64,000 nt of DNA from a virus: positions 23,795 to 87,794 of IMG/VR virus record IMGVR_UViG_3300025122_000009. One strand, given 5' to 3'. The position numbers and the translations under genes were made by a program. The number at the start of each line of letters is the position of its first letter. Position 1 is the stretch's first letter. Positions 23,481 through 58,793 of this stretch are shown piece after piece. The notes beneath the pieces were generated by a model that worked only from the letters and a program-made list of their open reading frames with translations, had not been told where the DNA came from and made no database searches.

Positions 23481-24893
23481 ATGAAAGATAGAAAACCTCT
23501 TAACAATAAAATTTTCACCCCTCAAGGGAAAAATGGCCTTAATGCGATTGCGTCCTATAAATTCCGGAAGTTTTACAAGGATAAGTATCTTCAAATGCAC
23601 AAGCCATTTGAAAAAGCTTTAATAGATTTGTGGTACGATAAACCCTTGTTTGGAAAAGTTAGTGCGGAGGGAGACGCCATTTTTCTTTCGGAAACAAATT
23701 TGAAGCAGCTTAGGGTGGAGGGAGACAAAACTCTTTTTGCGGTTGATTTTGTAGCCGATGCGTTTAGCGATCTGCAAACACACTTTGTGGAAGCTGCTTT
23801 TCAGAGAAGAATAAAAACAGAAGACACCCCCTATGTTTCCCTAGATCCTCAGATAGCATGGGCTCCAATTGGCAATATGTACCACAATTATTTGACCTCT
23901 ATTTATAAGAGTTTCGTGTCCAATTATATAACGTCCCGAGGCGCCGAAAGAAAAATAGGAAATTTTGACGCCTTTGTACAATTGTTTATTATGTTCTTGC
24001 GTGATGTAGGAGTAGATTTTCCCTTTACTCGAACAGGTTTTATATTATCTAACCGATGTCCCAATACGGTGTCTGGGTTGATGATTGATCTAGCGGGAGC
24101 AGCCCATGGCGCCGACTTAAAAAAGGTAAATAGTTTTATAAAAGATCGCAATTTTAGATTTTTTCGTGATTCCGCTAAAAATTTTGGTTTTATGGTAGAT
24201 CGGAACGCCCCTTGGCGTTTGGTAGCAGATCTATCATCGCCCAAGATGCAGGAGTACATAGCACGCTATGGCTTGTGGGATAGTAGCAGCGATATGATAG
24301 ATAAATATTATTATAAGTCTCATCGCTTGGATATAGAGACGATGAAGGCGTATTTGGTTGAGTTTTACAACTCTTTTGCCCTCGAACTCCCCTATACGGA
24401 TTGCCCCACTCAGATTGTATCTTGGGATACGCCCGGGACAACCGGGAACAAAGAAAGAATTTCTCGAAGGAGAATTTTTAGACAAAAGGTGACACGACAG
24501 CAAGTAGATGCGGCTTACGGGCCTACATTTTGGCTGAAAACATATTTATTAATACGCATGTATGAAAGTGGCGCCGCAGTTACTTGGAGCCGGGATCGTT
24601 TTAAAAATAAAACAAAGCAAGTGTTTGAATATTACAAAGTGTTTGACTTTGAGACCGCAATAGGGTATATTAATGATTGGGCGAAGAAAGAGATGAAACT
24701 CAATCTTGCTAAAATGCTAGCTACGGATAAGTCTTTAGGAGTATCGGCATCCGACATACAAAAAGCACAGGATCAATATCCACAGACAGGACCAAGCGTA
24801 AATGACATTATTTCAGGTTATCAAGAGCCAAAAGAGAAGCCAAAAGAAACCAACATCGGCAAATCTACTGTATTTGACCCCCCACTTGACTAA
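23481..24893 (+). CDS. Virion structural protein, probably baseplate
   Basis: A 470-residue protein, rich in Tyr, Phe and Lys, with no signal peptide or clear membrane segment. No domain is recognised with confidence. It is the last gene of the tail block, after the large hub gene. Several motifs (WAPIGNMYHNYLTSIYKSF; TGFILSNRCPNTVSGLMID) look like those in unclassified structural proteins of aquatic T4-like phages, but I cannot confirm this. Its tail overlaps the polymerase-like frame that follows. Confidence 0.65.
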   Translation: MKDRKPLNNKIFTPQGKNGLNAIASYKFRKFYKDKYLQMHKPFEKALIDLWYDKPLFGKVSAEGDAIFLSETNLKQLRVEGDKTLFAVDFVADAFSDLQTHFVEAAFQRRIKTEDTPYVSLDPQIAWAPIGNMYHNYLTSIYKSFVSNYITSRGAERKIGNFDAFVQLFIMFLRDVGVDFPFTRTGFILSNRCPNTVSGLMIDLAGAAHGADLKKVNSFIKDRNFRFFRDSAKNFGFMVDRNAPWRLVADLSSPKMQEYIARYGLWDSSSDMIDKYYYKSHRLDIETMKAYLVEFYNSFALELPYTDCPTQIVSWDTPGTTGNKERISRRRIFRQKVTRQQVDAAYGPTFWLKTYLLIRMYESGAAVTWSRDRFKNKTKQVFEYYKVFDFETAIGYINDWAKKEMKLNLAKMLATDKSLGVSASDIQKAQDQYPQTGPSVNDIISGYQEPKEKPKETNIGKSTVFDPPLD

Positions 24894-26010
24894 TACGGTA
24901 CCTACTAGCGGTCGGACTTGGCGACATCACCCTTGTTTGGAGGAGGGCTCTTATGAATACGCTAACCTTTATTGCGAGGGCAAGACTTTAGATGAAGTGT
25001 GCCCTGCAGCGCTGCGTGACAAGTGGGAAATTCAAACTAAACGCTTGAAGGCTTTTTATCGCGCTTTTAGGGAGGCTAAGGTTGATCTGACAGAACATTG
25101 TTTTTATGAGCAACTCCCTCCTGGTTTGTTAAAAGAATATTTGGAGTTGAAAAACCAGATTACTACTCACGTCTTTGATACTTATCCAAAACCTGCGAAT
25201 TATGATTTTTTGTTTGAGTTAACAAAAGTAGTAGAAGAAATAAAAGAAAGAAAAATAAATGTTGATCCTTCTATTTTAAAGAAGCGCTTTGCAGAATATA
25301 AAGTGCGCCAATTTTATAAAAAAATCTCCCACACCTATCCTTCCATTTCTTATAATATTTTTGGAACAAAAACAGGACGCCTTACTACCACCAAGGGTAG
25401 TTTTCCCATCTTAACGATAGATAAAAGTTATCGTTCTATAATCAGACCACAAAATGATTTTTTTGTCGAATTGGATTTCAACGCAGCGGAATTGAGGACG
25501 CTGCTTGCATTGGGAGAACACGAACAGCCGGTGGAGGATTTACACGACTGGAATGCGGAACATGTTTATCGGGGATTGTTATCCCGAGAGGAATCAAAGA
25601 AGAGAATTTTTTCTTGGCTCTATAATCCTTCATCGAAAGATTATTTGTCGGCCCGGGCCTATGACAGAAAGAAAGTGCTTGAAAAATACTGGGATGGTAA
25701 AGTTGTAAGAACTCCTCTTGGGAGAGAGATCGATGCTGACCAGCACCACGCTCTCAACTATATTATTCAAAGTACCACGAGTGATTTATTTTTGGATAGA
25801 ATGATAGCGGTACATAAATTTTTGGCAGACAGAAAATCCTTTATTTCTTTTTCAATACATGATAGCCTAGTAATTGATTTTGCTGAAAGCGAGCGCAACT
25901 TGATTTCCGACATTGCTCAAATTTTTTCGCAGACAATTTTTTCAGATTTTTTGACTAATGTTCGAGAAGGTCAAAATTATGGAGATATGGACGTAAGATG
26001 CAAACTGTAA
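24802..26010 (+). CDS. Family A DNA polymerase domain (Pol I-like), polymerase part only
   Basis: A protein of up to 402 residues with the palm motifs of PolA. Motif A is ELDFNAAELRTLLAL, with the metal-binding Asp. Motif C is FSIHDSLVID, with the His-Asp pair. The helix before motif C (ALNYIIQSTTSDLFLDRMI) matches N-x-x-[IV]-Q-x-[ST]-x-x-D. The O-helix (motif B) around SKKRIFSWLYNPSSKDYL is degenerate relative to R-x-x-x-K-x-x-x-F-x-x-Y-G. There is no 3'-5' exonuclease domain. The start is unsure: ATG 24802 overlaps the previous gene by 92 bases; TTG 24886 would remove most of the overlap. It is separate from the C-family polymerase at 44.9 kb. Confidence 0.8.
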   Translation: MTLFQVIKSQKRSQKKPTSANLLYLTPHLTNTVPTSGRTWRHHPCLEEGSYEYANLYCEGKTLDEVCPAALRDKWEIQTKRLKAFYRAFREAKVDLTEHCFYEQLPPGLLKEYLELKNQITTHVFDTYPKPANYDFLFELTKVVEEIKERKINVDPSILKKRFAEYKVRQFYKKISHTYPSISYNIFGTKTGRLTTTKGSFPILTIDKSYRSIIRPQNDFFVELDFNAAELRTLLALGEHEQPVEDLHDWNAEHVYRGLLSREESKKRIFSWLYNPSSKDYLSARAYDRKKVLEKYWDGKVVRTPLGREIDADQHHALNYIIQSTTSDLFLDRMIAVHKFLADRKSFISFSIHDSLVIDFAESERNLISDIAQIFSQTIFSDFLTNVREGQNYGDMDVRCKL

Positions 26011-28007: not shown

Positions 28008-29117
28008 ATGGCAAAAGCAAAAAAAGCTGGCAAGCTTTCGATTGCGGACATGCGTAGTTTAATTAACCGAAAAGCCGGCATGCCGGTGGCTCACAATTTA
28101 AGCGAAGAAAATCCCACCCAAGTTGCCGATTGGATTCCAACAGGTTCGCGGTGGCTCGATTCTATTGTTTGTCGAGGTAAGCTGGCAGGAATTCCGGTGG
28201 GGAAAGTCTCCGAGATCGCTGGCCTCGAATCTACTGGGAAATCATACATGGCAGCTCAAGTCGCAGCAAATGCCCAGAAAATGGGTATCGATGTGATTTA
28301 TTTTGATTCCGAATCAGCGATTGATCCGAGCTTCTTGGAGCGCGCCGGTTGTGATTTGGATACTCTTCTTTATGTTCAGGCGCAATCTGTTGAATTTGTG
28401 CTAGAGACTATTGAGGATCTGCTGGGCTCCAATGAAAACAGAATGCTGTTTATTTGGGATTCGTTGGCCTTAACCCCAGCTATTTCTGATATCGAGGGAG
28501 ATTTTAATCCTCTTTCATCAATGGCGGTCAAGGCTAGGATTTTGGCCAAGGGAATGTCTAAGTTGACCGTTCCTATTGCCAATACTCAATCAACTTTTTT
28601 GGTTCTCAACCAATTGAAAACCAACATCACCCGCAGCCCTTCTGAGGCAATGACCACACCTTATATGACTCCTGGTGGTAAGGCGATGATTTATTCTTAT
28701 TCGCTGCGCGTGTGGCTGACAGGGCGTAAAGCCAAAGCGTCATATATCATCGATGATAAGGGATATCGCATCGGTTCCGAAGTGAAGGTTCGGTTGGAAA
28801 AGAGCCGATTTGGTACACAGGGAAGACAATGTAATTTTAAAATTTTGTGGGGTGAGGAAATTGGTGTTCAAGACGAGGAGAGTTGGTTTGAGGCCGTTAA
28901 AGGTTCTAAGCATTTGGCCTCATCGGGAGCGTGGTATACTCTTGCACATGCGGACGGCACCGAAGAAAAATTTCAACCTTCTAAGTGGCCTGAAAAAATT
29001 CAAGATGAGAAGTTTAGGACCAGAATTTTAGAAATCATGGATGAAGAAGTGATTTTAAAATTTGACAAGCGGGAGGTAGACGCCGACCAGTTCTACAATT
29101 CTGAAGAAGCGGTCTAG
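28008..29117 (+). CDS. uvsX: UvsX, RecA-like recombinase
   Basis: A 369-residue recombinase. Walker A is GLESTGKS (72-79), Walker B is RMLFIWDSLA, and the L2-type region has TYMTPGGKAMIYS-like PYMTPGGKAMIYSYSLRVWL. It forms filaments on gp32-coated DNA for strand exchange and recombination-dependent replication. The length fits T4 UvsX (about 390). The gene follows gp32 with a 68-base gap and has a GAGGAAGAAG box. No UvsY gene is recognised in the window. Confidence 0.92.
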   Translation: MAKAKKAGKLSIADMRSLINRKAGMPVAHNLSEENPTQVADWIPTGSRWLDSIVCRGKLAGIPVGKVSEIAGLESTGKSYMAAQVAANAQKMGIDVIYFDSESAIDPSFLERAGCDLDTLLYVQAQSVEFVLETIEDLLGSNENRMLFIWDSLALTPAISDIEGDFNPLSSMAVKARILAKGMSKLTVPIANTQSTFLVLNQLKTNITRSPSEAMTTPYMTPGGKAMIYSYSLRVWLTGRKAKASYIIDDKGYRIGSEVKVRLEKSRFGTQGRQCNFKILWGEEIGVQDEESWFEAVKGSKHLASSGAWYTLAHADGTEEKFQPSKWPEKIQDEKFRTRILEIMDEEVILKFDKREVDADQFYNSEEAV

Positions 29118-31582: not shown

Positions 31583-32542
31583 ATGAAAAGAGTAGTATTG
31601 ATTGATGCCCTAAACATGCTTTACAGGGCGTATATTGTGGACCCAAGCCTTTCTACCAACGGTTATCCAATCGGAGGAATTAAAGGCTTTCTTAAGATTT
31701 TACAGAAAATGGTGAGGGAAATGAAGCCAGACCGCGTTATTATCGCGTGGGATGGCATCGGTGGCTCAAAACGACGGAAATTGGTTCAAAAGGATTATAA
31801 AGCGGGAAGGAAGCCGATCCGGCTGAATCGGGACATTAGGAATATGTCCGAGAATGAAGAAATAGAGAATAAAATTTGGCAACAAACTCGTCTGACACAA
31901 TATTTAAATGAGTTGCCTGTTATCCAAACCATGGTACCTCACATCGAGGCTGATGACATCATCGCGTATGCGGTTCAGATGAATTGTTTTAAGGGTTGGC
32001 AAAAGATTATTATCTCTAGCGATAAGGACTTTATTCAGCTTTGTGATGACGAAACAGTGTTGTATAGGCCGATACAGAAGGTCTTTCTCAACAGCAAAAG
32101 GGTGGTGGAAGAGTACGGCATCCATCCGGCTAATTTCGCCCTCGCACGCGCCATTTCTGGTGATAAGAGTGATAATCTCAAGGGTGTTGGAGGCGTTGGG
32201 ATGAAGACAGTAGCCAAGAGATTCCCTTTTTTAAGCGAAGAAAAGACCCATTATATAAGCAGTCTTATCGACCATTGTGGGGAGATGAAAGAAGAAAAGG
32301 CAAAGGTTTATCAGACTATTCAGGAGAACGTGGACGTTATCGAACAGAATTATAAACTAATGCAGCTGTATTCCCCCAATATCCCAATTAACGGGAAACA
32401 AACTGTGCGGCATGCTATTGAAGATTTTGTGCCTGAATTTAATAAGACAGGCACGGTTAAGATGATGACTGAGGATGGCTTTGGAGCTTTTGACTGGTCA
32501 TCCCTGTTCCAAAACATGAAACGTATCACGACGGAGAAATAA
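31583..32542 (+). CDS. rnh: RNase H / 5'-3' flap exonuclease (T4 Rnh, FEN family)
   Basis: A 319-residue nuclease that removes RNA primers from lagging strands. The FEN acidic residues are seen in order: LIDALNMLYRAY (Asp8), AWDGIGGSKRRK, HIEADDIIAYA, SSDKDFIQL and SGDKSDNLKGVGGVGMKTV, the last forming the helix-hairpin-helix that binds duplex DNA. Length is near T4 RNase H (305). It ends one base into the helicase start and forms the start of the replication operon with its own promoter. Confidence 0.9.
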   Translation: MKRVVLIDALNMLYRAYIVDPSLSTNGYPIGGIKGFLKILQKMVREMKPDRVIIAWDGIGGSKRRKLVQKDYKAGRKPIRLNRDIRNMSENEEIENKIWQQTRLTQYLNELPVIQTMVPHIEADDIIAYAVQMNCFKGWQKIIISSDKDFIQLCDDETVLYRPIQKVFLNSKRVVEEYGIHPANFALARAISGDKSDNLKGVGGVGMKTVAKRFPFLSEEKTHYISSLIDHCGEMKEEKAKVYQTIQENVDVIEQNYKLMQLYSPNIPINGKQTVRHAIEDFVPEFNKTGTVKMMTEDGFGAFDWSSLFQNMKRITTEK

Positions 32543-33903
32543 TGGAAAAAGTTGATTTTTCTAAATATGGGAAAGCTTTCCAAGAGGACCTGGCACAATT
32601 AATCCTGGAGGATAGATCCTTTTCAGATCAAATGCAAGAGGTTTTGAAGCTCGAATTCTTTGAATTTAGATATCTTCAAGTATTTATTGAAAAGATATTT
32701 GATTATCGCAACAAGTATGGCGTTCATCCCACCAGCAAGATAATGATTACTCTCCTCCGCGCTTCTTTAGATGAGGAGAATGACGCGGTTAAGAAACAGG
32801 TTAGGGATTATTTTGCGCGTATCCATAAAGCAGGATTCGGCGTCGATGGCGATGAATATATTAAGGAGACTTCGCTTGATTTTTGTCGAAAACAAAAGCT
32901 CAAGGAGGCAATGCTTGAATCGGTTAAGCTTTTAAAAAGTTCGTCTTTTGACGAGATTAGCGAAGTTATTAATCAGGCTCTAAAGCTGGGGAGTGATAAT
33001 AAGTTTGGATACGATTATAAAGTAGACTTTGAAAAGCGATTTGAAATTAAAGCTCGCAATGCCGTCAGTACTGGGTGGAAAGAAGTTGATGACTTATGTA
33101 AGGGGGGCTTGGGAGAGGGAGAACTGGGAGTGGTTATTGCTCCTACCGGAGCGGGAAAATCAATGGCTTTGGTACACTTGGGGGCCGAGGCTGTAAAAGA
33201 AGGTAAAACTGTCATACACTATACTTTGGAATTGGGATCTACTATAATTGCATCGAGGTATGATAGTTGTATTACAGGCGTTCACTTGAAAGACCTCTTT
33301 TCTTTTAAAGAACAAATATTTGAAACTGTCCAAGAGTTGGAAGGAAATTTAATTATTAAGGAATACCCAACAAAATCAGCTTCGCCCACCACAATCAAGA
33401 CTCATTTGGAGAAGCTTCGCCACCGGGGCATACCCATTGATATGATTATTGTTGATTATGGAGATTTATTGCGACCAAATGTGATAAGAAAAGAGAAAAG
33501 GCACGAACTGGAAACTATTTACGAAGATTTGAGAGCCCTCGCTCAAGAATTTAAGTGTCCTTGTTATACGGCTAGTCAAACTAACAGGAGCGGCTTGAAC
33601 GCGGAAGTAATTACAATGGAATCTATTTCAGAAGCTTTTAATAAATGCTTTGTAGCAGATTTTATCTTCTCCTTATCGCGCACCATCCAAGATAAAAACA
33701 CCAACAGTGGGCGCCTTTTTATAGCTAAAAATAGAAATGGCCCGGACGGATTAATTTATCCTATATTTATGGACACGAGCAATGTGAAGATAAAGGTGCT
33801 TCCTTCGACTGGAGAAACGATGGATAGCGTTGTATCTAAAACGTCCAAAGAGCAGGGAGAACTTCTCAAAGAAAAATATAAGCAATTTAAAAAAGGTAAA
33901 TAA
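32542..33903 (+). CDS. 41: Replicative DnaB-type helicase (T4 gp41 family)
   Basis: A 453-residue hexameric helicase. The N-terminal helical domain (1-150) is followed by the RecA-like core: STGWKEVDDLCKGGLGEGEL, Walker A APTGAGKS (200-207), Walker B MIIVDYGDLL, and ASQTNRSG (motif III-like). Near the C-terminus IAKNRNGPDG matches the DnaB arginine-finger region (K-x-R-x-G). It unwinds the fork and works with a primase that is not in this window. Overlaps the RNase H stop codon by one base and is followed 3 bases later by the reductase gene. Confidence 0.93.
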   Translation: MEKVDFSKYGKAFQEDLAQLILEDRSFSDQMQEVLKLEFFEFRYLQVFIEKIFDYRNKYGVHPTSKIMITLLRASLDEENDAVKKQVRDYFARIHKAGFGVDGDEYIKETSLDFCRKQKLKEAMLESVKLLKSSSFDEISEVINQALKLGSDNKFGYDYKVDFEKRFEIKARNAVSTGWKEVDDLCKGGLGEGELGVVIAPTGAGKSMALVHLGAEAVKEGKTVIHYTLELGSTIIASRYDSCITGVHLKDLFSFKEQIFETVQELEGNLIIKEYPTKSASPTTIKTHLEKLRHRGIPIDMIIVDYGDLLRPNVIRKEKRHELETIYEDLRALAQEFKCPCYTASQTNRSGLNAEVITMESISEAFNKCFVADFIFSLSRTIQDKNTNSGRLFIAKNRNGPDGLIYPIFMDTSNVKIKVLPSTGETMDSVVSKTSKEQGELLKEKYKQFKKGK

Positions 33904-38773: not shown

Positions 38774-38775
38774 AA

Positions 38776-39996
38776 ATGATTAAACGACCATATACTGAAG
38801 AAGATGTATCACTTTTGCGGGGCTCTTTAAGAGAGGAGCATACTTTGGCTAAAAGGGCAGCTAAGACTTTGAGGCGCCTGTTGAAAGAGGAAGACTATGT
38901 TCATGCTATGGGGGCATTAACAGGGGGTCAAGCAATGCAGATGGTTAAAGCGGGCACCAAAGCAATTTATTGTTCGGGATGGCAAGTGGCCGCTGACGCC
39001 AACGATTCTCATGAAATGTACCCTGATCAGAGTTTGTACGCGGTACACAGTGTTCCCATGTTAGTCCAGAAGATTAACAATACGCTTCGCCGTGCCGACC
39101 AAGTTGAGTGGAGTGAAAACGACCGCATCCCCACACGGGATTGGTTTGCCCCTATTGTGGCTGATGCCGAAGCTGGCTTCGGAGGATCTTTGAACGCTTT
39201 TGAATTAATGAAGGCTATGATCCGCGCCGGCGCAGCCGGCGTTCATTTTGAAGATCAGCTGTCTTCCGCGAAGAAGTGTGGCCATCTGGGTGGAAAGGTG
39301 CTGGTGCCAGCTTCCGAGTTTATTAAGAAGCTTGTTGCTGCGCGGCTAGCTGCTGACGTGATGGGCACTCCTACGGTTATCATCGCTCGCACGGATGCTG
39401 ATAGTGCTCGTTTGTTGACGTCTGATATCGATGAAGTTGATAAGCCTTTTATTGAGAGCAGAAATCGAACTTCAGAAGGATTTCATAGGATCACGGGCGG
39501 AATTGATATGGCTATTGCGAGGGGTCTTCAATATGCTCCGTATGCTGACTTGTTGTGGTGCGAAACCAGCACTCCAGACTTGGAAGAGGCTAAAAAATTC
39601 GCTGATGCGATCCACAAAAAATTTCCTGGTAAAATGCTAGCATACAATTGCTCTCCATCCTTTAATTGGCGCAAAAATTTAGACGATAAAACTATCGCCA
39701 AATTTCAGCGTGAGTTAGGAAAAATGGGATATAAATTTCAATTCATTACTTTGGCCGGTTTCCACAATCTCAACCATCACATGTTCCAGCTTGCGCTAGA
39801 TTATAACAAGCGCGATATGTTGGCTTATGCTGATTTGCAGGATGCGGAATTTGCCGCGCAGGAAATGGGCTATACGGCTCACAAGCACCAGAGGGAGGTG
39901 GGAACGGGATATTTTGACGCTGTTTCGCAGGTTATTTCATCCGGGGACCCCTCCACTCTAGCGTTGAAGAACTCTACCGAAGAGGATCAGTTTTAG
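38776..39996 (+). CDS. aceA: Isocitrate lyase
   Basis: A 406-residue enzyme that splits isocitrate into glyoxylate and succinate. The signature [11 protein letters not shown] carries the catalytic Cys (Cys168). Other conserved blocks are [64 protein letters not shown] and the C-terminal [10 protein letters not shown] with a final STEEDQF, almost as in E. coli AceA. The N-terminus is about 25-30 residues shorter than E. coli's, but starts at the conserved RPY-x-x-E-D-V. All catalytic residues I can check are intact. With aceB next to it, the phage carries the complete glyoxylate bypass. Confidence 0.96.
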
Positions 39997-40012: not shown

Positions 40013-40267
40013 TTGAAGCCTTTGACGCGGATTGCCGCCCTCTTGTTTGTATTGGGGAAAATATTTTGTTTTTTTACTATATTTTCTGTCTTTATAAACA
40101 GGGGGGCGGCAGAGGTTTGCCTCTTTATTTATATTGCATGTATAATTGGAGCCATTGTTTTATCTCTTGTAGATATGAGCCGAATTAAAAGAGAAGAACA
40201 AACTCCTCCGGTTGAAGAAGTAAAGAGATGGGCCCGTGAGCATGGCCTAAAATTGGGTGATGAGTGA
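40013..40267 (+). CDS. Small two-helix membrane protein, unknown
   Basis: An 84-residue protein with two hydrophobic helices (about 7-28 and 35-53) and a charged C-terminal tail with KRWAREHGLKLGDE. It starts at TTG 40013, preceded by TAGGAGT; another short frame from 40003 overlaps but encodes an implausible Cys/Tyr mix. It ends 4 bases into thyX, suggesting translational coupling. No family recognised. Confidence 0.55.
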   Translation: MKPLTRIAALLFVLGKIFCFFTIFSVFINRGAAEVCLFIYIACIIGAIVLSLVDMSRIKREEQTPPVEEVKRWAREHGLKLGDE

Positions 40268-40974
40268 AAAAGAAAATAGATTTATATGGAGATGATATCG
40301 GGTTTGTACAACTGGTTGATAGTCTTGGCGATGATCTTTCCGTGGTCAATAGCGCTCGTGTTTCTTTTGGCAAGCATAAGGCGCAACTGGAAGAACAAGA
40401 TAAAAAATTAATTAGTTATCTTATTGCACATCGCCACACCAGCACATTAGAACATTGTGTTATGACGCTTCGATTCAAGGTACCATTATTTATTTCCAAG
40501 CAGCACATGCGTCACCGAACGTGGAGCTACAATGAAATTAGTAGAAGGTACACCAATTTTAATATAGAATTTTATGAACCTCAAGCTTTCCGGGCTCAAC
40601 ACGAATCAAACCGACAAGCGAGCACGAGCGCACTAGTGGACCCCAAAGTGATTTATCATTCTGTTCCTAATGGGGCATCGAGCACGGCGAGCCAGTTGGT
40701 GAAAAATCACAATGGGGCTAGTTTGCGCCTATATGAGGCGCTCTTGGATGCTGGGGTGTGCCGGGAACAAGCGCGAGGGGTTTTACCCCAAAATATTTAT
40801 ACTGAATATTATGGAACAGCTAATTTAAATAATATTCTTAAATTTATTGCGTTGCGCACCCATCCCGGTGCACAGTGGGAAATCCAGCAAGTAGCCAACG
40901 CTGTTTTGGATATTGCTAAAGATTTGTTTCCGGTTACAGTTAAGGCTTTTATAAAGGAGAAAAATGTGGTATAA
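40264..40974 (+). CDS. thyX: Flavin-dependent thymidylate synthase ThyX
   Basis: A 236-residue enzyme making dTMP from dUMP with FAD, NADPH and methylene-tetrahydrofolate. The ThyX motif is intact: RHRTWSYNEISRRY (R-H-R-x-x-S-x-N-E-x-S-x-R-Y). An earlier HTSTLEHCVMTLRFKVP block with the FAD-binding His and a late ALRTHPGAQWEIQQ block complete the fold. The start is GTG 40264, overlapping the upstream stop codon. It works together with the reductase and the dUTPase in this window. Confidence 0.95.
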   Translation: MKKKIDLYGDDIGFVQLVDSLGDDLSVVNSARVSFGKHKAQLEEQDKKLISYLIAHRHTSTLEHCVMTLRFKVPLFISKQHMRHRTWSYNEISRRYTNFNIEFYEPQAFRAQHESNRQASTSALVDPKVIYHSVPNGASSTASQLVKNHNGASLRLYEALLDAGVCREQARGVLPQNIYTEYYGTANLNNILKFIALRTHPGAQWEIQQVANAVLDIAKDLFPVTVKAFIKEKNVV

Positions 40975-41143
40975 TATTCGAGCACGGTCCATTTCGCTGG
41001 ACCGAATGATAGAATTTTGGCTGTTTGCGGAAGACAGAGAAAAATTAGATGAAATTTTAAATAAAAAGGAATATGATAATATTGAATGGATTAAAGAAGC
41101 CACCCCCCCGTGGGAGCGAAAAACAAAAAGGAGTATACGATGA
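40964..41143 (+). CDS. Short 59-residue ORF coupled to thyX and metK
   Basis: This small frame starts at ATG 40964, ten bases before the thyX stop codon ends, behind an AAAGGAG box. It ends at TGA 41141-41143, which overlaps the metK ATG as ATGA. The product is MWYNIRARSI-initiated, charged and helical (LDRMIEFWLFAEDREKLDEI), rich in Trp and Arg/Lys/Glu. The tidy overlaps at both ends and the ribosome binding site support a real gene. No function recognised. Confidence 0.6.
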   Translation: MWYNIRARSISLDRMIEFWLFAEDREKLDEILNKKEYDNIEWIKEATPPWERKTKRSIR

Positions 41144-42108
41144 TTAGAACAGCGGAGTGTATAACACCCAAACATCCCGATAAAATTTGCGACAGGATTT
41201 CAGATGCTATTTTAGATGAATGCCTACGACAGGACCCTTCTTCTCGCGTAGCGGTGGAAACTTGTGGAGGGCATGGAAAAATATATATTACAGGGGAGAT
41301 TACCACTAGCGCAACAGTTGACATTCCAGTCATCGCTAAAGAAGTTTACGGGAAGCCTATCGAGGTTGAAACTAATATTGTCCAGCAGAGTAATTTCATC
41401 GCTCAAGGTGTTGACACAGGAGGGGCTGGGGACCAAGGCATTATGGTGGGGTATGCGTGCAATGAAAATGACGCTTTAATTCCGCAAGAGTTGTTTTTGG
41501 CGCGTCAGCTTTGTCGATTACTATATGATAAATACCCTCATGACGGCAAGACACAGGTGACTTTGGAAGATGATCGGATTGTTGCCGTGGTGGCCAGCTT
41601 CCAAAATGCACCAGCGGAAGATCTTCATGCGATGGTAAAGGAGTGGCTCGGCCTTCCGTGGCTGGATGGGCGACGAGAGCCTGAAATTCATTGCAATCCA
41701 GCGGGGGATTGGGAGATGGGCGGCTTTGATGCCGATGCTGGTGTGACAGGTCGCAAGCTCGTGGTGGATAATTATGGCCCTCGCATCCCGATTGGAGGGG
41801 GCGCGTTTAGTGGTAAAGACGCATCCAAAGTGGACCGGAGCGCTGCATATATGGCACGCCGTATAGCAGTAGATATTTTGGGGGATCATCAAGCCGATGA
41901 AGTGTATGTCTATTTGGCGTATGCGATTGGACATGATCAGCCAGTTCAAGCCACAGCAATAGTTGATGGTGTTGAGGTCCAATTGGGCTTGCTAGGCAAA
42001 TATGACTTAACTCCCCGTGGCATTAAATCATATTTAAAATTAACAGAACCAGTCTTTGAACAGAGTGCCACATGGGGGCATTTTGGCAACGGCTTTGAAT
42101 GGAGGTAA
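41140..42108 (+). CDS. metK: Compact S-adenosylmethionine synthetase
   Basis: A 322-residue enzyme (bacterial MetK about 384) that makes SAM from methionine and ATP. Start chosen at ATG 41140 (AAAGGAGTAT box) instead of 41110. Motifs present: HPDKICDRISDAILD (ATP-binding His and Asp), GGEITT-like ITGEITTSATVDI, GAGDQGIMVGYA, GLTGRK-like GVTGRKLVVDNYG and GGGAFSGKDASKVDRSAAYM. The part equivalent to the active-site mobile loop is shorter and the final helix after YGHFG (here WGHFGNGFEWR) is missing. It may feed the methyltransferase at 48.4 kb or offset SAM loss. Confidence 0.92.
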   Translation: MIRTAECITPKHPDKICDRISDAILDECLRQDPSSRVAVETCGGHGKIYITGEITTSATVDIPVIAKEVYGKPIEVETNIVQQSNFIAQGVDTGGAGDQGIMVGYACNENDALIPQELFLARQLCRLLYDKYPHDGKTQVTLEDDRIVAVVASFQNAPAEDLHAMVKEWLGLPWLDGRREPEIHCNPAGDWEMGGFDADAGVTGRKLVVDNYGPRIPIGGGAFSGKDASKVDRSAAYMARRIAVDILGDHQADEVYVYLAYAIGHDQPVQATAIVDGVEVQLGLLGKYDLTPRGIKSYLKLTEPVFEQSATWGHFGNGFEWR

Positions 42109-42683: not shown

Positions 42684-43129
42684 TAGCCCAACTCTTATGC
42701 GCCACAGTCGTGGCCCTCTCTTTCCCTAGAGCAGATGTAGCTTGTAAATATATGCCAACCTTGGTAGAAGCCTCAGAGAAATATAATTTAGAGCCATCGC
42801 TGATGATTGCTATGATACGGGTAGAAAGCAATTGGAAGACGACTGCTGTGAGTCGTTCGCGTGCTTGTGGCTTGACACAGGTATTGGTTAAATATTCTAA
42901 ATATTCGTGCCGTACTTTAACTCGGAATCCTAAGATTTCAATCATGGAAGGAGCTAAGAAGCTTAACTATTGGATTTATAAATATGGGAAAGGCAATATA
43001 AAAGTGGGCCTATGTGGGTACAATGCTGGCTTTAGGTGTAAGGGAAAAAACAAAAACAAGCGTGGTTTTCGCTATGCTAAAAAAGTTTTAAAGTATCAAA
43101 AGTTAGTGGATGAGAAAAATAGTTCTTGA
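42680..43129 (+). CDS. Secreted lytic transglycosylase (SLT family)
   Basis: A 149-residue enzyme that cleaves the glycan chain of peptidoglycan. A short signal sequence (1-21) precedes the SLT core: LMIAMIRVESNWKTTAVS with catalytic Glu49, then ACGLTQVL (the GLMQ-type motif), and LCGYNAGFRC (the A-YNAG motif). Two Cys pairs may form disulfides. Being secreted and separate from the endolysin, it may act in lysis or local wall opening. Its start overlaps the phosphatase stop codon as ATGA. Confidence 0.88.
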   Translation: MIAQLLCATVVALSFPRADVACKYMPTLVEASEKYNLEPSLMIAMIRVESNWKTTAVSRSRACGLTQVLVKYSKYSCRTLTRNPKISIMEGAKKLNYWIYKYGKGNIKVGLCGYNAGFRCKGKNKNKRGFRYAKKVLKYQKLVDEKNSS

Positions 43130-44021
43130 TAAGGTTGTTATTGGAACGCGCCTCGATGCTCTCATTTATGCCTTTTTAAATGACCTTCCTCTATTGTTAG
43201 CTGACATTAAAAAGCCATCTCAAGTAGAATATTTAGAAGAAACATCTCTGCCGGTTATTGGAGATTTCCCCTCTACTCAATTGAAAACCGCTACTGTCGT
43301 TAAAACAGTTGGGCCCAACAAGCTTGAAGTGTGGAACCGCTTGTCTTTTTTGCTGTCGATAAGAGGAAAGATTCCATTTGCAGATAAAATTTCCTTTATC
43401 AGAGTCGATGAGGAAAAAAAAGAATTAAAAATTGTGACTCACAATTCACGCTCAATAATAATTCATTGTAACCGAGTTGTAATTTTTGATGATAAAAATG
43501 TAAATGGTCTTCCGGCTGCTGTTAAGACGTGCGGGGATGATACAAAGCGCACGGTGTTGGATTGGATTGATGTAAGGTCAGGGATGGTACACCCCTACGA
43601 TGTCATCGAAGCCGAACTCCCATTCGTGAACTCGGTTCATTTTTATCCCTCTAACCGGATTGATGGGAATCATGACCGTAAGGATTTGGTAGCCGTCTCG
43701 TATTTGACTAGAGACCAATTAAATAATATAAATTATTCTGACTTGCTTGTTCGCTACAGGGTTTTAGAGATGATGAAGGAAGTGGGTATTCGGGGAAGAC
43801 GGAACGGCAAAGATAGCAACAATCCCGCAAAATATAAACATTATGCTATAAAACTAGAAATGAATAAAAGAGAGGTTGACTTGGAGGAAAAAAATTTGTA
43901 TAATAATACATCTTTTATTAAATTTAAGTACGACACCGCAGAGGAATTATTGAAAAATGCTGCCACTGTTTCTTCTCCCCTTTTTGAATTGTATTCTAGC
44001 TTGAAAGGGGCACCCCCATGA
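43110..44021 (+). CDS. Unknown 303-residue protein with Rossmann-like start
   Basis: The N-terminus KIVLDKVVIGTRLDALIYAF followed by LNDLPLLLADIKKP looks like a nucleotide-binding beta-alpha-beta unit with a degenerate glycine loop. The remainder is mixed alpha/beta with no recognised motif. It overlaps the transglycosylase end by 20 bases and the next gene by 4 bases (ATGA). The grouping with the following nucleotidyltransferase-like gene and the polymerase suggests a linked role, but none can be named. Confidence 0.7.
   Translation: MRKIVLDKVVIGTRLDALIYAFLNDLPLLLADIKKPSQVEYLEETSLPVIGDFPSTQLKTATVVKTVGPNKLEVWNRLSFLLSIRGKIPFADKISFIRVDEEKKELKIVTHNSRSIIIHCNRVVIFDDKNVNGLPAAVKTCGDDTKRTVLDWIDVRSGMVHPYDVIEAELPFVNSVHFYPSNRIDGNHDRKDLVAVSYLTRDQLNNINYSDLLVRYRVLEMMKEVGIRGRRNGKDSNNPAKYKHYAIKLEMNKREVDLEEKNLYNNTSFIKFKYDTAEELLKNAATVSSPLFELYSSLKGAPP
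43876..43904 (+). promoter_or_regulatory. Internal sigma-70-like promoter
   Basis: TTGACT (43876-43881), 17-base spacer, perfect TATAAT (43899-43904), inside the 43110 gene and about 115 bases before the next start codon. It could give extra transcription of the polymerase gene cluster. Confidence 0.55.
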
Positions 44022-44890
44022 GCGCTTTTCATTTGGCCGGTATCGTGCCCGTGGCGGGTCAAAAATTAGATTTTAATTTTCCGTGGCATGACGCCCTTCA
44101 GCCTATTGGCAAAGACTATTTAGCAGTAGAAAGAGCAGTTGTGGAATGCGCGTATGCGGGGTGCGAAACAATATGGGTGGTATGTAACGATGATATGCAG
44201 CCTCTGATTCGCTATAGGTTGGGAGAGTATGTTCAAGATCCAATATTTTTAAACAGAAGACATCACTTCGGTGCAACTCAAGTGCATAAACAAATACCGA
44301 TTTACTACGTTCCCATTCACGTTAAAGACTTGGGTAAAAGAGATTGTCTTGCATGGAGTGTCTTGTATGGAGCCCTCACCTCCTATCATATAAGTAAGAA
44401 AATAAGTAAGTGGGTGGTTCCCTCTAAATATTATGCAGCTTTCCCATATGGGATATATGAGCCGGCAAGTGTGCGCGAGCATCGCAAAGAGATTTCAAGC
44501 CATAAAAGGTTTTATGTTACTTATCGGGGAAAAACAGTACGAGATAACGAATATCTAGGTTTTACATTTGACGAAGAAGACTATAAAGAATATGTGCGCG
44601 TTATCAGACGAGAAGGAACTGGCTTAAGAAGGCCCGGACAAACGATAGGAAATTCTATGGAAAACCTGCCCATTCAAGAAAGGTGGAGCGGAAGGCATTT
44701 TCCACTTGACAAAGTTTTTGGGGGTGCTATACTGGATGGTGCCAAGGTGGTGGAAGTCCCGTGGTACCAAAAGGTTGACAGTTGGGAGGGATTGAGGTAT
44801 TATTTGTCCGGTGATAAGCAAGTGGAGCGACCCACTAAAGACCTGTTTTCGTATAAAGAATGGAATCCAATAGGAGAGGATAACGAATGA
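44018..44890 (+). CDS. Nucleotidyltransferase-like protein, function unknown
   Basis: A 290-residue protein. The start HLAGIVPVAGQKLDFNFPWH followed by AVERAVVECAYAGCETIWVV and CNDDMQPLIRYRLG resembles the sugar-nucleotide transferase fold (G-I-[IV]-x-A-G at the NTP site, then A-V-x-x-[AC]-x-x-A-G-[CV]-x-x-I-x-[IV]-[VI]-x). The glycine-rich loop is degenerate, so catalytic ability is uncertain. It overlaps both neighbours by 4 bases and lies directly before the DNA polymerase. Confidence 0.6.
   Translation: MSAFHLAGIVPVAGQKLDFNFPWHDALQPIGKDYLAVERAVVECAYAGCETIWVVCNDDMQPLIRYRLGEYVQDPIFLNRRHHFGATQVHKQIPIYYVPIHVKDLGKRDCLAWSVLYGALTSYHISKKISKWVVPSKYYAAFPYGIYEPASVREHRKEISSHKRFYVTYRGKTVRDNEYLGFTFDEEDYKEYVRVIRREGTGLRRPGQTIGNSMENLPIQERWSGRHFPLDKVFGGAILDGAKVVEVPWYQKVDSWEGLRYYLSGDKQVERPTKDLFSYKEWNPIGEDNE
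44706..44733 (+). promoter_or_regulatory. Internal sigma-70-like promoter before the DNA polymerase
   Basis: TTGACA (44706-44711), 16-base spacer, TATACT (44728-44733), within the upstream gene and about 150 bases before the polymerase start. Confidence 0.5.
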
Positions 44891-47800
44891 AAAAATCTAG
44901 CATACCTTTTGTGGGCCTCCACGCGCATAGCGTTGCGGGCTCTATATTTGATGGTCTCGGGTATCCTCAAGAACATATGGACTATGCTTTCGAAAATGGA
45001 AGCGAAGCACTGGCGCTTACTGACCATGGAAACATGAACGGATTAAGTTATCAGATTATGCACGCTCGCACGATGCGAGAAGACGGGAAAAACTTTAAGC
45101 CTATTTTTGGTGTAGAAGCGTATTTTTTACCCTCGGTAAAAAAGTGGAAACAGGAATACGAGGCTGTCAAAGCGGATAAAAAACGCCAAAAGGAGATTGA
45201 AAAGAGTAGCGGACTTGTTATTGAAAACGAAGGAGCTTCCAAGGCCCGTGCTAAAAATATCCTCAATAGACGACGCCACTTGATTTTACTGGCTCAAAAT
45301 CAGGAGGGTTTGAATAATATTTTTCGTATGATATCCACCTCATATCAAGGGGATAATTTTTATCGATATCCTCGTCTTGACTACGCCGCTCTTAAACAAC
45401 GCAACACGGGGGTTATAGCCGCAAGTGCATGTTTGGGCGGCGTATATGCTGGAGATTATTGGGAAAATAGAGAACGTGGTAAAGATGCTATTGCGGATGC
45501 TATGCGTAACACCACACACAACATGCTGGATATTTTTGGAGATCGCTGGTACGGGGAACTCCAATGGAATAATATTCCAGAACAACACGAATTGAATCAA
45601 TTTATTATTCAGATGCATCACGAGTTTGGTATTGAATTAATTTCAACAGCCGACAGTCATTACCCCAACCCTGATGCATGGAAGGATAGAGAACTTTATA
45701 AACGCCTCGGGTGGCTTGGGAAGTCTCGACCCGACTACCTTTCAGCCGACTTGCCAGCAGATGTAGATGAGATTGGTTATGAACTTTATCCAAAAAACGG
45801 CGATCAAATGTGGGAAGCATACAAGACATATTCCCAAAAAGTGGGGGCGTCTTATAATGATAATATGATTGCCGATTCAATTATGCGAACTCATGATATC
45901 GCTATGAATAGGATAGGCAGCTTTATGCCTGACAACAAGGTGCGGCTGCCGGATTTTGTAGTTCCCACGGGGATGACAGCAGACGCTGCGCTGGCCAAAT
46001 TAGGTATGGGAGGTCTGCAGGAGCGAGGGCTTTTGGATAATGAATATCTTGAACGTCTTCGATACGAAACCGATGTTATTAGTGAACGAGGATTCGCCAA
46101 GTATTTTCTCACTATGAAAAGTGTAGCCGACACTGCGACTGACAGTCAATTGGTGGGTTCGGGACGCGGAAGCGCCGCCGGGTCGTTGTTGGCATACGCG
46201 CTGGGAATTACGCAAGTAGACCCCATTAGGTATAATCTTCAGTTTGAGAGATTTATGCGCAAGGAGCAGAAAGATTATCCCGATATTGATTATGATGTTT
46301 CCGATCCGATGGAGTTAAAAGAAGAGTTGATGGAGGAGTGGGGCCAGACTACAGTAGTGCCCATCTCTAATTTTAATACTCTTCAATTGCGCTCGCTTAT
46401 TAAGGACGTTTCTAAATTTTATGGAGTGCCGTTCACCGAAGTGAATCCAGTTACCTCCAAGATGATTAGAGAAGCAACTCCAATCGCGAAGAAAAAACAT
46501 GGCATCAAAGCGGGGGTGTACGCTCCCACCTTTGAAGAATTAATGGAATATTCAGAATCCTTGAAGACCTTTCTAGCCAAATATCCTCATATCGCGGACC
46601 ATATTAACGTCCTTTTCGGGCAGTCGCGATCCGTTAGTAGGCACGCGGGGGGTGTTGTTGTTGGGGAGGATTTAGATAAGCACATGCCCCTTATCAATAG
46701 CGGTGGAGTGGTTCAAACGCCGTGGAGCGAGGGTCAAAATGTCAGGCACTTAGAGCCTATGGGTTTCATTAAATTTGATATCCTGGGGCTGGCGTCACTC
46801 CGTATGATGGAGGGCGCAATCCGGCACATCTTAAAGCGTCATCACGGGGTTGACGAGCCGCGCTTTGAGGACGTAAAACAATTTTACGATGAAAATTTGC
46901 ATCCTGATAAGATTAATTTTGACGATCAGAAGGTTTATAAGAATATCTTTCACAAGGGAAAGTGGGCCGGCATATTCCAGTTCACGGAGAAGGGAGCGCA
47001 AGACTTTTGCAAGAAAGCAAAGCCGCGCAGCATCATCGATATCGCAGCCATTACAAGTATTTACCGACCAGGACCACTGAGTGCTGGGGTGGATAAGATG
47101 TATGTCAAGGCAAAGAGTACCCCTGCAGATATCGAATACCCTCATCGCCTTTTTAGGGAAGCAACGGAAGAGACGTATGGGTTCTTGATCTTCCAGGAGC
47201 AAATCGCCATGCTTGCCCACAAGCTTGGAAAGGACATCACTCTAGACGAGGGGAATGCTCTAAGAAAGCTGTTGGTTAAAAAAGGGACAGGCAAAAAGGA
47301 TGACAAGAAAGAGGACATTAAAAGGCGCTTTGTTGAAGGGTGTAAGCTTAATGGGCTTACGCGAGGAGACGCCGAAGAAATGTGGGCGAAGTTTGAATAC
47401 TTCTCAGGCTATGGCTTCAATAAGTCGCATGCAGTTAGTTATAGCATACTTAGTTATCAGTGCGGTTGGCTTTACAACTATTATCCTGCTGAGTGGATGG
47501 CTGCTTTCTTAGACAAAGAGCCCGAGGGAAGAAAAGAAAAGGCTATTGGTATTGCCAAGCAGTTTGGATTTAAAATCAAGCCACTTAACATCAACCAATC
47601 TGGGAAGGTGTGGGAGATATCAGAGGACGGCAAGACTTTGATCCAGCCTCTCACATCGATCAAGGGACTTGGGGACGCAGCCATGCAACAGATCATGGAG
47701 CATCGACCTTTCAACAATATAGAGGAGTTCTTGTTTCACGAAGAGATTGTATATGGCAAACTCAACAAGCGCGCCCTTGATGTGTTGGTTCGAAGTGAGG

Positions 47801-48306
47801 CTTTGGAGTGCTTGATGGATAAACGCTTTAGTGGTGGAAAACATTTCTGGAGCGCGGTTGCTGTGGACCGCCCGCGCAAGGAGAAAAATCTGTTGGAGAA
47901 TATTGATTCATATGTGGAAGAGGGAGATTTCACAAACGAAGAAAAGATTGAGCACCTCTCTTCTTTGACAGGGGTATTCCCCATGGACCTTGTGATGGAT
48001 GAGCATATTTTGAGACGGTTGAACGAGAACCACATCCCGCCTATTTCAGAGTATGACCCCGACCTTTTGGTTACGTGGTTTATACCCAGGAAAACCACGC
48101 TGCGGAAAACTAAAAATGGGAAGGACTATTATATTGTTGAAGTGATTGACAACAACAGTGTCCAAACATCTATCAAGTGCTGGGGGGTTGACCCGACGCG
48201 AGATAGAATATATAATAATAGACCTTACATGGCAAAGTTGAGTTACGATGAGCAGTGGGGTTTTAGTACAAGATCAGTTCGACACACATTTAAATTGCTA
48301 GCGTAG
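44887..48306 (+). CDS. dnaE: C-family DNA polymerase (DNA polymerase III alpha, DnaE-like)
   Basis: An 1139-residue polymerase, close to bacterial DnaE (1160). The PHP domain starts with VGLHAHSVAGSIFDGLGYP and ALALTDHGNMNG, with further metal-site residues in STADSHYPNP. The palm motif GSGRGSAAGSLLAYALGI is followed by DYPDIDYDVSD with two catalytic Asp, and IKFDILGLASLRMM carries the third. The ITSIYRPGPL and GYGFNKSHAVSYS motifs follow, then a tandem helix-hairpin-helix region and a C-terminal OB fold. All core catalytic residues are present. This may be the main replicase, in place of the T4 B-family gp43, which is absent from this window. Confidence 0.95.
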   Translation: MKKSSIPFVGLHAHSVAGSIFDGLGYPQEHMDYAFENGSEALALTDHGNMNGLSYQIMHARTMREDGKNFKPIFGVEAYFLPSVKKWKQEYEAVKADKKRQKEIEKSSGLVIENEGASKARAKNILNRRRHLILLAQNQEGLNNIFRMISTSYQGDNFYRYPRLDYAALKQRNTGVIAASACLGGVYAGDYWENRERGKDAIADAMRNTTHNMLDIFGDRWYGELQWNNIPEQHELNQFIIQMHHEFGIELISTADSHYPNPDAWKDRELYKRLGWLGKSRPDYLSADLPADVDEIGYELYPKNGDQMWEAYKTYSQKVGASYNDNMIADSIMRTHDIAMNRIGSFMPDNKVRLPDFVVPTGMTADAALAKLGMGGLQERGLLDNEYLERLRYETDVISERGFAKYFLTMKSVADTATDSQLVGSGRGSAAGSLLAYALGITQVDPIRYNLQFERFMRKEQKDYPDIDYDVSDPMELKEELMEEWGQTTVVPISNFNTLQLRSLIKDVSKFYGVPFTEVNPVTSKMIREATPIAKKKHGIKAGVYAPTFEELMEYSESLKTFLAKYPHIADHINVLFGQSRSVSRHAGGVVVGEDLDKHMPLINSGGVVQTPWSEGQNVRHLEPMGFIKFDILGLASLRMMEGAIRHILKRHHGVDEPRFEDVKQFYDENLHPDKINFDDQKVYKNIFHKGKWAGIFQFTEKGAQDFCKKAKPRSIIDIAAITSIYRPGPLSAGVDKMYVKAKSTPADIEYPHRLFREATEETYGFLIFQEQIAMLAHKLGKDITLDEGNALRKLLVKKGTGKKDDKKEDIKRRFVEGCKLNGLTRGDAEEMWAKFEYFSGYGFNKSHAVSYSILSYQCGWLYNYYPAEWMAAFLDKEPEGRKEKAIGIAKQFGFKIKPLNINQSGKVWEISEDGKTLIQPLTSIKGLGDAAMQQIMEHRPFNNIEEFLFHEEIVYGKLNKRALDVLVRSEALECLMDKRFSGGKHFWSAVAVDRPRKEKNLLENIDSYVEEGDFTNEEKIEHLSSLTGVFPMDLVMDEHILRRLNENHIPPISEYDPDLLVTWFIPRKTTLRKTKNGKDYYIVEVIDNNSVQTSIKCWGVDPTRDRIYNNRPYMAKLSYDEQWGFSTRSVRHTFKLLA

Positions 48307-53719: not shown

Positions 53720-54022
53720 ATGTTAGAAATAGAAGAGATGAAAAGTTCGTTGAGAAAGATTGTTTTAGAGCGTGATGAAGAATATTATGAGGAGGGAAAC
53801 GTGGTTCATGCGAAAAATGCGTTTTTAATTAATTCCGTTCTAGCATGGTATTTTGACCAAGAGGCGGCTTTCAACATCAGCCACATTAGTTCTGTCCTAG
53901 ATTTATTAGACAAACACATTAACAAAGAAGTAGTGCTTTCCTGGGAAGAAGGGAGCCTCCAGATCTTAAGTCCAAAAACATCAATTAAAAAAGAGGAATC
54001 ATGGAAAGCCAAGAAAAAATAG
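53720..54022 (+). CDS. Small helical acidic protein, unknown
   Basis: A 100-residue acidic helical protein with an AGGAGGG box. The INSVLAWYFDQEAAFNISHI stretch and a Lys-rich end are its only notable parts. It overlaps the ClpP-like gene by 22 bases and may be translated together with it. No function recognised. Confidence 0.55.
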   Translation: MLEIEEMKSSLRKIVLERDEEYYEEGNVVHAKNAFLINSVLAWYFDQEAAFNISHISSVLDLLDKHINKEVVLSWEEGSLQILSPKTSIKKEESWKAKKK

Positions 54023-57221: not shown

Positions 57222-58793
57222 ATGCCAAGGCAATATGATTCTAATCACTCTCTACAACAAAAGATTCTTGAAGGAATAGACATCCTCGCAGATAACGTCG
57301 CCTCTACCATGGGTCCGCGAGGTAGAAACGTTATCCTCCACCAAAAAGGCACGAACCCTTTTATTACCAAAGACGGGGTGACAGTAGCTAAATTCGTTGA
57401 GTTGGAAGACCCAGTACAAAATGCGGGTGTACAGATTCTACGCCAAGCTGCCGAACGCACTAATAGTTCAGCTGGGGATGGCACCACTACAGCTACCGTG
57501 TTGGCCCGGGCCATCCTCAAACACGCACAGAAGTATATTATTGCAGGGAGTTCCCCCATCGAGCTTAAGCGAGGAATCGATAAGGCAGTACAGGATGTAC
57601 TGGTGTACCTCAAAACCAATTCACAGCCCATCACTTCGGAACAAGACATCTCGCATATCGCCACCATCTCTGCTAACAACGACCCCACTATCGGAGAAAT
57701 GGTGGGAACGGCTGTAGACCGCGTAGGCAAAGACGGCTCTATTACTATTGAGGAAGCGCGCTCGGTGGAAACTAGCCTAAGCGTGGTAGAGGGCTTTAGA
57801 TTTGATGCTGGGTATTTGTCGCCACAGTTTGTGACCGATGAGAGGCGCAATTTGGTGAAATATGAGGACTTACTTATTTTAGTCACCGATTCTAAAATAG
57901 AAATGGTTGATGATATTTTGCCCGTTCTCGAAGTGGTTGCGCGGGAAGGACGCCCTTTTTTAATTGTGGCCGAGGATATTGAAGGACAAGCATTGGCGGC
58001 CTTGATCATGAATGCCATGCGGGGCACAATGAGGATAGCTGCCGTTAAGGCCCCACGCTATGGGGAAGAGCGGCGCAATATCCTTAAAGATCTGGCGATC
58101 TCAGTTGGTGCGACTTTTGTCTCTAGAGAGTCGGGGACACGCTTGGCTGATGTTAAATTAAGCGATTTGGGCGTGGCTAAAAATGTAGAAGTTTCTAAAG
58201 GCATGACCACTATTGTGGATGGTGCCGGTGATTACGAGGAGGTAGAAAAACGCATAGAGGATCTAAAGCAGGAGATAGGACAAACCGAATCACTTCACGA
58301 TTGTGAGCGACTTCAAGAGCGTATTGTGCGCCTAGCTAGCGGGATTGCTATTATTTATGTCGGCGCGCCTACCGAGGTTGAGATGATAGAGAAGAAACAT
58401 CGCCTAGAAGATGCTCTGGAGGCGGTGCGGTCAGCCCAAGAAGAGGGTGTTATTGCCGGTGGTGGAACCGCCCTCGTACAGGCGAGTACTACTCTAGACT
58501 CCACCAACGCCGAAAACGCCGATCAACGCTTCGGGTACGAAATTATTAAAGAGGCCATTAAAGAGCCCTTTCGCCAGATGGCCATAAATTCGGGGATCTC
58601 TGCGGATATAATGTTGGATGAAATAGAAAACAGCGAAACGGGCGTAGGTTATAATTTTGTGTCTAAGGAGATAACAGACATGTATTGCGACGGGATTATT
58701 GATCCGGCGAAGGTGACGCGAGTGGCGCTCCAAAATGCTGCTTCGGTGGCCGCTGCGTTAATTTTAGCTAATTTTGCCATCGTAGAAACTTAA
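57222..58793 (+). CDS. groEL: Chaperonin GroEL, full length
   Basis: A 523-residue chaperonin (E. coli GroEL 548). Motifs include STMGPRGRNVIL, TKDGVTVAKFVELEDPVQN, GDGTTTATVLARAI (ATP site), and GAPTEVEMIEKKHRLEDALE with the ATP-hydrolysis Asp in the LEDAL element, then EEGVIAGGGTALV. The C-terminal GGM repeat tail is missing. GroEL is essential for folding T4 gp23; here the phage carries its own copy with a GroES-like partner 20 kb away. Own sigma-70-like promoter upstream suggests early or middle expression. Known in some large phages but not common. Confidence 0.96.
   Translation: MPRQYDSNHSLQQKILEGIDILADNVASTMGPRGRNVILHQKGTNPFITKDGVTVAKFVELEDPVQNAGVQILRQAAERTNSSAGDGTTTATVLARAILKHAQKYIIAGSSPIELKRGIDKAVQDVLVYLKTNSQPITSEQDISHIATISANNDPTIGEMVGTAVDRVGKDGSITIEEARSVETSLSVVEGFRFDAGYLSPQFVTDERRNLVKYEDLLILVTDSKIEMVDDILPVLEVVAREGRPFLIVAEDIEGQALAALIMNAMRGTMRIAAVKAPRYGEERRNILKDLAISVGATFVSRESGTRLADVKLSDLGVAKNVEVSKGMTTIVDGAGDYEEVEKRIEDLKQEIGQTESLHDCERLQERIVRLASGIAIIYVGAPTEVEMIEKKHRLEDALEAVRSAQEEGVIAGGGTALVQASTTLDSTNAENADQRFGYEIIKEAIKEPFRQMAINSGISADIMLDEIENSETGVGYNFVSKEITDMYCDGIIDPAKVTRVALQNAASVAAALILANFAIVET

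What the first reader, a model, noticed from the sequence alone, without database searches (positions are those of the whole stretch)
44887..48306. C-family (DnaE-like) replicase in an otherwise T4-like replication set
The gene encodes a near full-length Pol III alpha with intact catalytic Asp residues and PHP domain, while helicase, SSB, UvsX and RNase H are T4-type. T4 uses the B-family gp43, not seen here. Together with the separate family A polymerase domain at 24.8 kb this suggests the replicase was exchanged. It is unclear which clamp and proofreading subunit it uses.
Basis: partly seen in the sequence, partly recalled or inferred. Interest (0 to 1): 0.78.

Follow-up and report, generated by a model that had tools for sequence, protein, structure and literature searches.

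The report
Phage with swapped-in bacterial-type replicase
This T4-related, probably marine phage copies its DNA with a bacterial-type (family C) polymerase instead of T4's own type and carries a second, shortened family A polymerase; the gene is real and conserved in hundreds of related viral contigs, but phages of this exact kind were described in 2024.

Summary
Window 44887-48306 encodes an intact 1,139-aa family C (DnaE-like Pol III alpha) polymerase inside a phage with T4-type terminase, portal, sheath, helicase, UvsX, SSB and RNase H. All three catalytic Asp and all nine PHP metal ligands are conserved in (nearly) all of 81 relatives. No family B polymerase, T4 clamp-loader subunit, DnaN or DnaQ-type exonuclease was found in 15 related contigs of up to 193 kb.

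The "family A domain at 24.8 kb" is a separate ~400-aa polymerase with motifs A, B and C. It is homologous to divPolA1 of Flavobacterium phage immuto, which Yutin et al. 2024 (PMC11348598) found in 14 phages of 155-190 kb that also carry a regular polymerase of family A, B or C. This genome belongs to that group, in its family C form. Relatives with the same backbone carry family A (immuto) or family B plus clamp loader (Mel-JY01), so the replicase was exchanged.

Added here: the C form is abundant and always co-occurs with divPolA1 where contigs reach both loci; the DnaE clamp-binding motif is missing; PHP is the only proofreader found; the two genes upstream look like nucleotide or DNA-modification enzymes, not clamps.

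Not categorically new; interest low to moderate.

The parts
44887..48306 (+). family C DNA polymerase (DnaE-like Pol III alpha), 1,139 aa
   Evidence: 80 IMG/VR relatives at 66-75% identity over full length kept out of 531
44917..45666 (+). PHP domain (residues ~11-260) with all nine metal-ligand positions; predicted 3'-5' proofreading exonuclease
   Evidence: ligand set per PMC5636811
46015..46788 (+). palm/NTPase domain with catalytic D468 (46288-46290), D470 (46294-46296), D631 (46777-46779)
46870..47346 (+). fingers domain
47566..47826 (+). helix-hairpin-helix (HHH_6)
47827..48303 (+). C-terminal region, OB-like by comparison with DnaE; interval aligned with the E. coli QADMF clamp motif is deleted; no QxxL/MF motif in any of 81 relatives
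24802..26010 (+). divPolA1: short family A polymerase (~400 aa, no exonuclease domain) with motifs A, B, C; start codon uncertain
   Evidence: PMC11348598
27151..27939 (+). single-strand DNA-binding protein (gp32-like, phrog_1192/224)
28008..29117 (+). UvsX/RecA-like recombinase (phrog_97)
31583..32542 (+). 5'-3' exonuclease / RNase H (T4 Rnh family phrog_107; 5_3_exonuc)
32542..33903 (+). DnaB/gp41-like replicative helicase (phrog_19)
43110..44021 (+). conserved upstream gene, FAD-dependent oxidoreductase fold (AlphaFold pLDDT 93); not a clamp
44018..44890 (+). conserved upstream gene, nucleotidyltransferase/GT-A fold (AlphaFold pLDDT 89); not a clamp
57222..58793 (+). GroEL; chaperonin genes also mark the neighbourhood of the regular polymerase in divPolA1 phages

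Best explanation
This is a member of the divPolA1 group of T4-superfamily phages in which the main replicase is a family C polymerase. In the lineage leading to this clade the usual T4-type gp43, and with it the gp44/62 clamp loader, was replaced by a phage-type DnaE-like polymerase; helicase, primase, SSB, UvsX and RNase H stayed. The family C enzyme most likely does the bulk of genome synthesis and proofreads with its own PHP domain. The small divPolA1 lacks an exonuclease and, being in one operon with SSB, UvsX, the 5' nuclease and helicase, most likely fills gaps or finishes Okazaki fragments (a Pol I-like job split over two genes) or extends recombination intermediates. Processivity is either intrinsic, given by a host clamp bound through a non-canonical site, or given by an unrecognised phage factor. 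Shown: gene content, conservation, co-occurrence, homology of divPolA1, different polymerase families in relatives. Inferred: direction of the swap, division of labour, proofreading activity, clamp use.
For: Intact catalytic and PHP residues in 81 relatives. No PolB, no gp62, no DnaN, no DnaQ-type exonuclease in contigs up to 193 kb; the gp44-like hits examined are a MoxR ATPase and ClpX. 14 of 15 PolC contigs carry divPolA1, and the one negative starts too close to PolC to include that locus. Of 12 divPolA1 contigs 8 carry PolC; in the other 4 the contig ends before PolC would be reached. Same operon in immuto (regular PolA with exonuclease) and Mel-JY01 (PolB with gp44/gp62). T4 PHROGs shared for terminase, portal, sheath, gp13, gp41, UvsX, gp32, Rnh. 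Group with A, B or C main polymerase reported in PMC11348598.
Against: No biochemistry. The clamp search is weak: the gp45 profile also misses Mel-JY01, which has the T4 loader, so a diverged phage clamp is not excluded. Yutin et al. note that the context of divPolA1 looks more replicative than that of the regular polymerase. The long stem of the family C clade leaves its donor unresolved.
Confidence: 0.7

Rival explanations
1. divPolA1, in the conserved replication operon, is the true replicase and the family C enzyme is auxiliary (repair or late synthesis).
For: divPolA1 lies directly upstream of SSB-UvsX-5' nuclease-helicase and is kept while the other polymerase changes family.
Against: divPolA1 is short, lacks a proofreading domain and diverges strongly between immuto and this clade (19-25% identity), whereas PolC is highly conserved (66-75%) with intact exonuclease and polymerase sites; each relative examined has a full-length proofreading polymerase of some family.
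Confidence: 0.15
2. Family C is ancestral in this lineage and relatives with family A or B are the ones that swapped.
For: The C form is the commonest one seen in the virus contigs searched.
Against: T4 and Mel-JY01, which share the structural and replication set, use family B with its clamp loader; abundance in one collection says nothing about ancestry.
Confidence: 0.25
3. Recent capture of the host's dnaE by the phage.
For: PHP-intact DnaE architecture resembles bacterial DnaE1.
Against: Closest bacterial hits are 27-32% identical; in both trees the bacterial sequences are separated from this clade on a long stem with 99-100% support, though long branches are present.
Confidence: 0.03
4. 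A phage-encoded clamp and loader exist but are too diverged to recognise.
For: The gp45 profile is insensitive in this group; many conserved genes remain unannotated.
Against: The gp62 profile works in Mel-JY01 but finds nothing here, and Mel-JY01's own gp44 and gp62 have no homologue in G000, G004 or G012; the gp44-profile hits examined are other ATPases; the two conserved genes next to PolC have other folds.
Confidence: 0.25

Closest known systems
divPolA1 phage group (Flavobacterium phage immuto and 13 others), Yutin et al. 2024 Virol J 21:200, PMC11348598
   Same: T4-like backbone, divPolA1 upstream of the SSB-UvsX-5' exonuclease-helicase set, a second regular polymerase of family A, B or C near GroEL/GroES, genomes of 155-190 kb.
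   Different: Immuto's regular polymerase is family A with an exonuclease; here it is family C. The paper does not discuss clamps. The GOV_bin records of that paper, possibly the nearest published ones, are not held in the collections, so identity to them could not be measured.
Microcystis phage Mel-JY01 (PP395634)
   Same: Nearest isolates by terminase (45%) together with immuto (47%); same SSB-UvsX-exonuclease-helicase order.
   Different: Uses family B gp43 with gp44/gp62; the gene at the syntenic place is not a detectable divPolA1 homologue.
Family C polymerases of other phages (phrog_405: Bixzunavirus, Stanwilliamsviridae, Bacillus phages PS1 and Andromeda, SPbeta-like)
   Same: DnaE-like domain order; 1,305 phage records match.
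   Different: At most about 29-31% identical; whether any of them has a T4-type backbone was not tested.
Escherichia phage T4 replisome
   Same: gp41, UvsX, gp32, Rnh and structural PHROGs shared.
   Different: No gp43, gp44/62 or recognisable gp45 found.

Membership tests
C-family DNA polymerase (DnaE-like) | PHP, palm, fingers and HHH domains in order | tested here: met
C-family DNA polymerase (DnaE-like) | three catalytic Asp | tested here: met
   81 of 81
C-family DNA polymerase (DnaE-like) | beta-clamp binding motif between HHH and OB domains (typical of cellular DnaE, not required for family C) | tested here: not met
   interval deleted relative to E. coli QADMF; no QxxL/MF in 81. Also absent in other phage DnaE in the alignment, so it does not exclude family C
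C-family DNA polymerase (DnaE-like) | polymerase activity | not testable with these tools
   needs purified enzyme
divPolA1 phage group | short divergent PolA homologous to that of immuto | tested here: met
   phmmer 2e-10 with immuto short PolA; catalytic D257 and D401 (immuto numbering) invariant
divPolA1 phage group | divPolA1 upstream of the SSB, UvsX, 5' exonuclease, helicase genes | tested here: met
divPolA1 phage group | a second, regular polymerase of family A, B or C with chaperonin nearby | tested here: met
   PolC 44887, GroEL 57222
T4-like replisome (Straboviridae) | family B gp43 | tested here: not met
T4-like replisome (Straboviridae) | gp44/gp62 clamp loader | tested here: not met
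T4-like replisome (Straboviridae) | gp45 clamp | tested here: inconclusive
   one weak hit only, in an unrelated AAA-type frame of G006, but the profile also misses Mel-JY01
T4-like replisome (Straboviridae) | gp41, UvsX, gp32, Rnh families | tested here: met

The most novel reading that the evidence does not exclude
The phage replisome is a clamp-loader-free, two-polymerase machine: a PHP-proofreading family C enzyme that has lost the clamp-binding motif works with a proofreading-deficient divPolA1 and T4-type helicase and recombinase, without any sliding clamp of its own.
Probability: 0.2. Interest if true: 0.6.

Novelty: new member of a known kind. Interest (0 to 1): 0.33.

Why it matters
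It makes concrete, testable questions of how a T4-type helicase works with a bacterial-type polymerase, and whether a family C replicase can work without the usual clamp.

Tried and rejected
Clamp loader: phrog_168 hits in 13 of 15 contigs looked like gp44. The two examined directly, both in G012, proved to be a MoxR-type ATPase (phrog_1297, followed by a VWA partner) and ClpX; the hits of similar length in other contigs were taken to be the same and not each checked. Clamp in the conserved genes upstream of PolC: AlphaFold models (pLDDT 93 and 89) matched FAD oxidoreductases and sugar nucleotidyltransferases, not clamps. Separate DnaQ proofreader: none in 18 contigs; an 'exonuclease' PHROG in G012 is PD-(D/E)XK. 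Donor phylogeny: the clade is monophyletic but on a long stem, so its sister group is not resolved. GOV_bin MK892584 and LR796625 of Yutin et al. are not in the collections. Alignment A4 included a 10-base reference by mistake and was replaced by A5.

Full report
Observation. The ORF at 44887-48306 is a complete 1,139-aa DnaE-like family C polymerase. Aligned with E. coli DnaE and other phage enzymes it keeps the catalytic triad (D468, D470, D631) and all nine PHP metal positions, of which E. coli has lost several; across 81 relatives these positions are unchanged apart from one N-terminally gapped row. Mtb DnaE1 uses this nine-residue site as its proofreading exonuclease (PMC5636811), so the phage enzyme probably proofreads itself. 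No RNase_T/DnaQ-family exonuclease was found in 18 contigs.

The genome. The window lies in an 87.8 kb virus record; relatives with the same gene order reach 190 kb, so the record is about half a genome. Terminase, portal, sheath, gp13, gp41-type helicase, UvsX, SSB and RNase H fall in the same PHROGs as the T4 proteins. A DnaG/gp61-like primase lies just outside the window. There is no family B polymerase in 15 contigs, no gp62 and no DnaN. The gp44-like hits that were examined are a MoxR ATPase and ClpX. The gp45 negative carries little weight, because the same profile misses Mel-JY01, which has the rest of the T4 loader.

The second polymerase. The 'family A domain' at 24802-26010 is a ~400-aa gene present in 14 of 15 large PolC contigs. 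The exception, G001, begins only about 10 kb upstream of PolC, short of where this gene lies about 20 kb upstream in the window. Motifs A, B and C are conserved and the protein is homologous to the short polymerase of Flavobacterium phage immuto (2e-10). In the reverse direction, 8 of 12 divPolA1-bearing contigs carry PolC; in the other four divPolA1 lies near the contig end on the side where PolC would be expected. None of the 12 has PolB.

Comparison with relatives. By terminase the nearest isolates are immuto (47%) and Microcystis phage Mel-JY01 (45%), ahead of cyanophages (36%). Immuto has short PolA, SSB, UvsX, 5' exonuclease and helicase in the same order, and a 777-aa family A polymerase with 3'-5' exonuclease beside GroES/GroEL. 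Mel-JY01 has SSB, UvsX, exonuclease and helicase in the same order, but a family B polymerase with gp44 and gp62. Neither of these polymerases has a homologue here.

Prior work. Yutin et al. 2024 (PMC11348598; preprint PMC11188092) described polymerase swapping among tailed phages and named divPolA1 in 14 phages of 155-190 kb that also carry a regular polymerase of family A, B or C, with chaperonin genes near the regular one. They inferred that divPolA1 has an active palm and no working exonuclease. The present genome fits every feature of that group that could be tested here. The paper does not mention clamps.

What is added. (1) Size: the family C form has at least 531 relatives in IMG/VR, 80 of them held here at 66-75% identity. 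(2) The C polymerase has lost the interval that carries the clamp-binding motif in E. coli DnaE, and no such motif is present in the C-terminal region of any of 81 members; other phage DnaE in the alignment lack it too, so this is not unique. (3) The conserved genes directly upstream are not replication factors: confident models match a nucleotidyltransferase fold and an FAD oxidoreductase fold, the latter including a phage FAD lyase that acts on modified thymidine in DNA. (4) The family C clade is monophyletic and set apart from cellular DnaE on a long stem, so recent host capture is unlikely; the donor is unresolved.

Mechanism. Most likely the family C enzyme is the main, self-proofreading replicase driven by the T4-type helicase and primase, and divPolA1 with the separate 5' nuclease acts like a split Pol I in gap filling or Okazaki maturation, or in UvsX-linked synthesis. 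These roles are inferred; none was assayed. Clamp use is open.

Verdict. Real, well conserved, and correctly read in outline, but it is a new member of a published kind. Interest is low to moderate, resting on the scale of the clade and the clamp question. That the clade is marine is an inference from the published relatives (Baltic Sea and GOV records) and was not tested on sample data.

Noticed in passing
window 37241-39996 (+): Adjacent malate synthase (510 aa) and isocitrate lyase (406 aa) genes, a glyoxylate-shunt pair, flanked by phage genes; not found in G004 or G012. aceA/aceB in environmental marine viral genomes have been reported (PMC5332604).
   Followed up: partly
window 43110-44890 (+): FAD-oxidoreductase-fold and nucleotidyltransferase-fold genes directly upstream of the polymerase; could be a DNA base modification pair.
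   Followed up: partly
window 25998-26864 (+): 288-aa gene next to divPolA1 with a GGGGTVSGA motif and a weak tubulin/FtsZ match (E 0.006), conserved in G004 and G012 at 38-45%.
   Followed up: no
L001 12185-15337 (just outside the window): gp47 and gp46 (SbcD and SbcC) appear fused in one 1,050-aa protein, kept in G004 and G012.
   Followed up: no
window 40264-40974 and 41110-42108 (+): ThyX and S-adenosylmethionine synthetase genes between the helicase operon and the polymerase.
   Followed up: no
L118 7727-10179 (G012): Conserved MoxR-type ATPase followed by a VWA/metallopeptidase-like protein (DUF2201) in the ~190 kb relatives; easily mistaken for a clamp loader.
   Followed up: partly
window 54001-54630 (+): ClpP-like or head-maturation-type protease between the polymerase and GroEL; G012 also encodes ClpX.
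   Followed up: no
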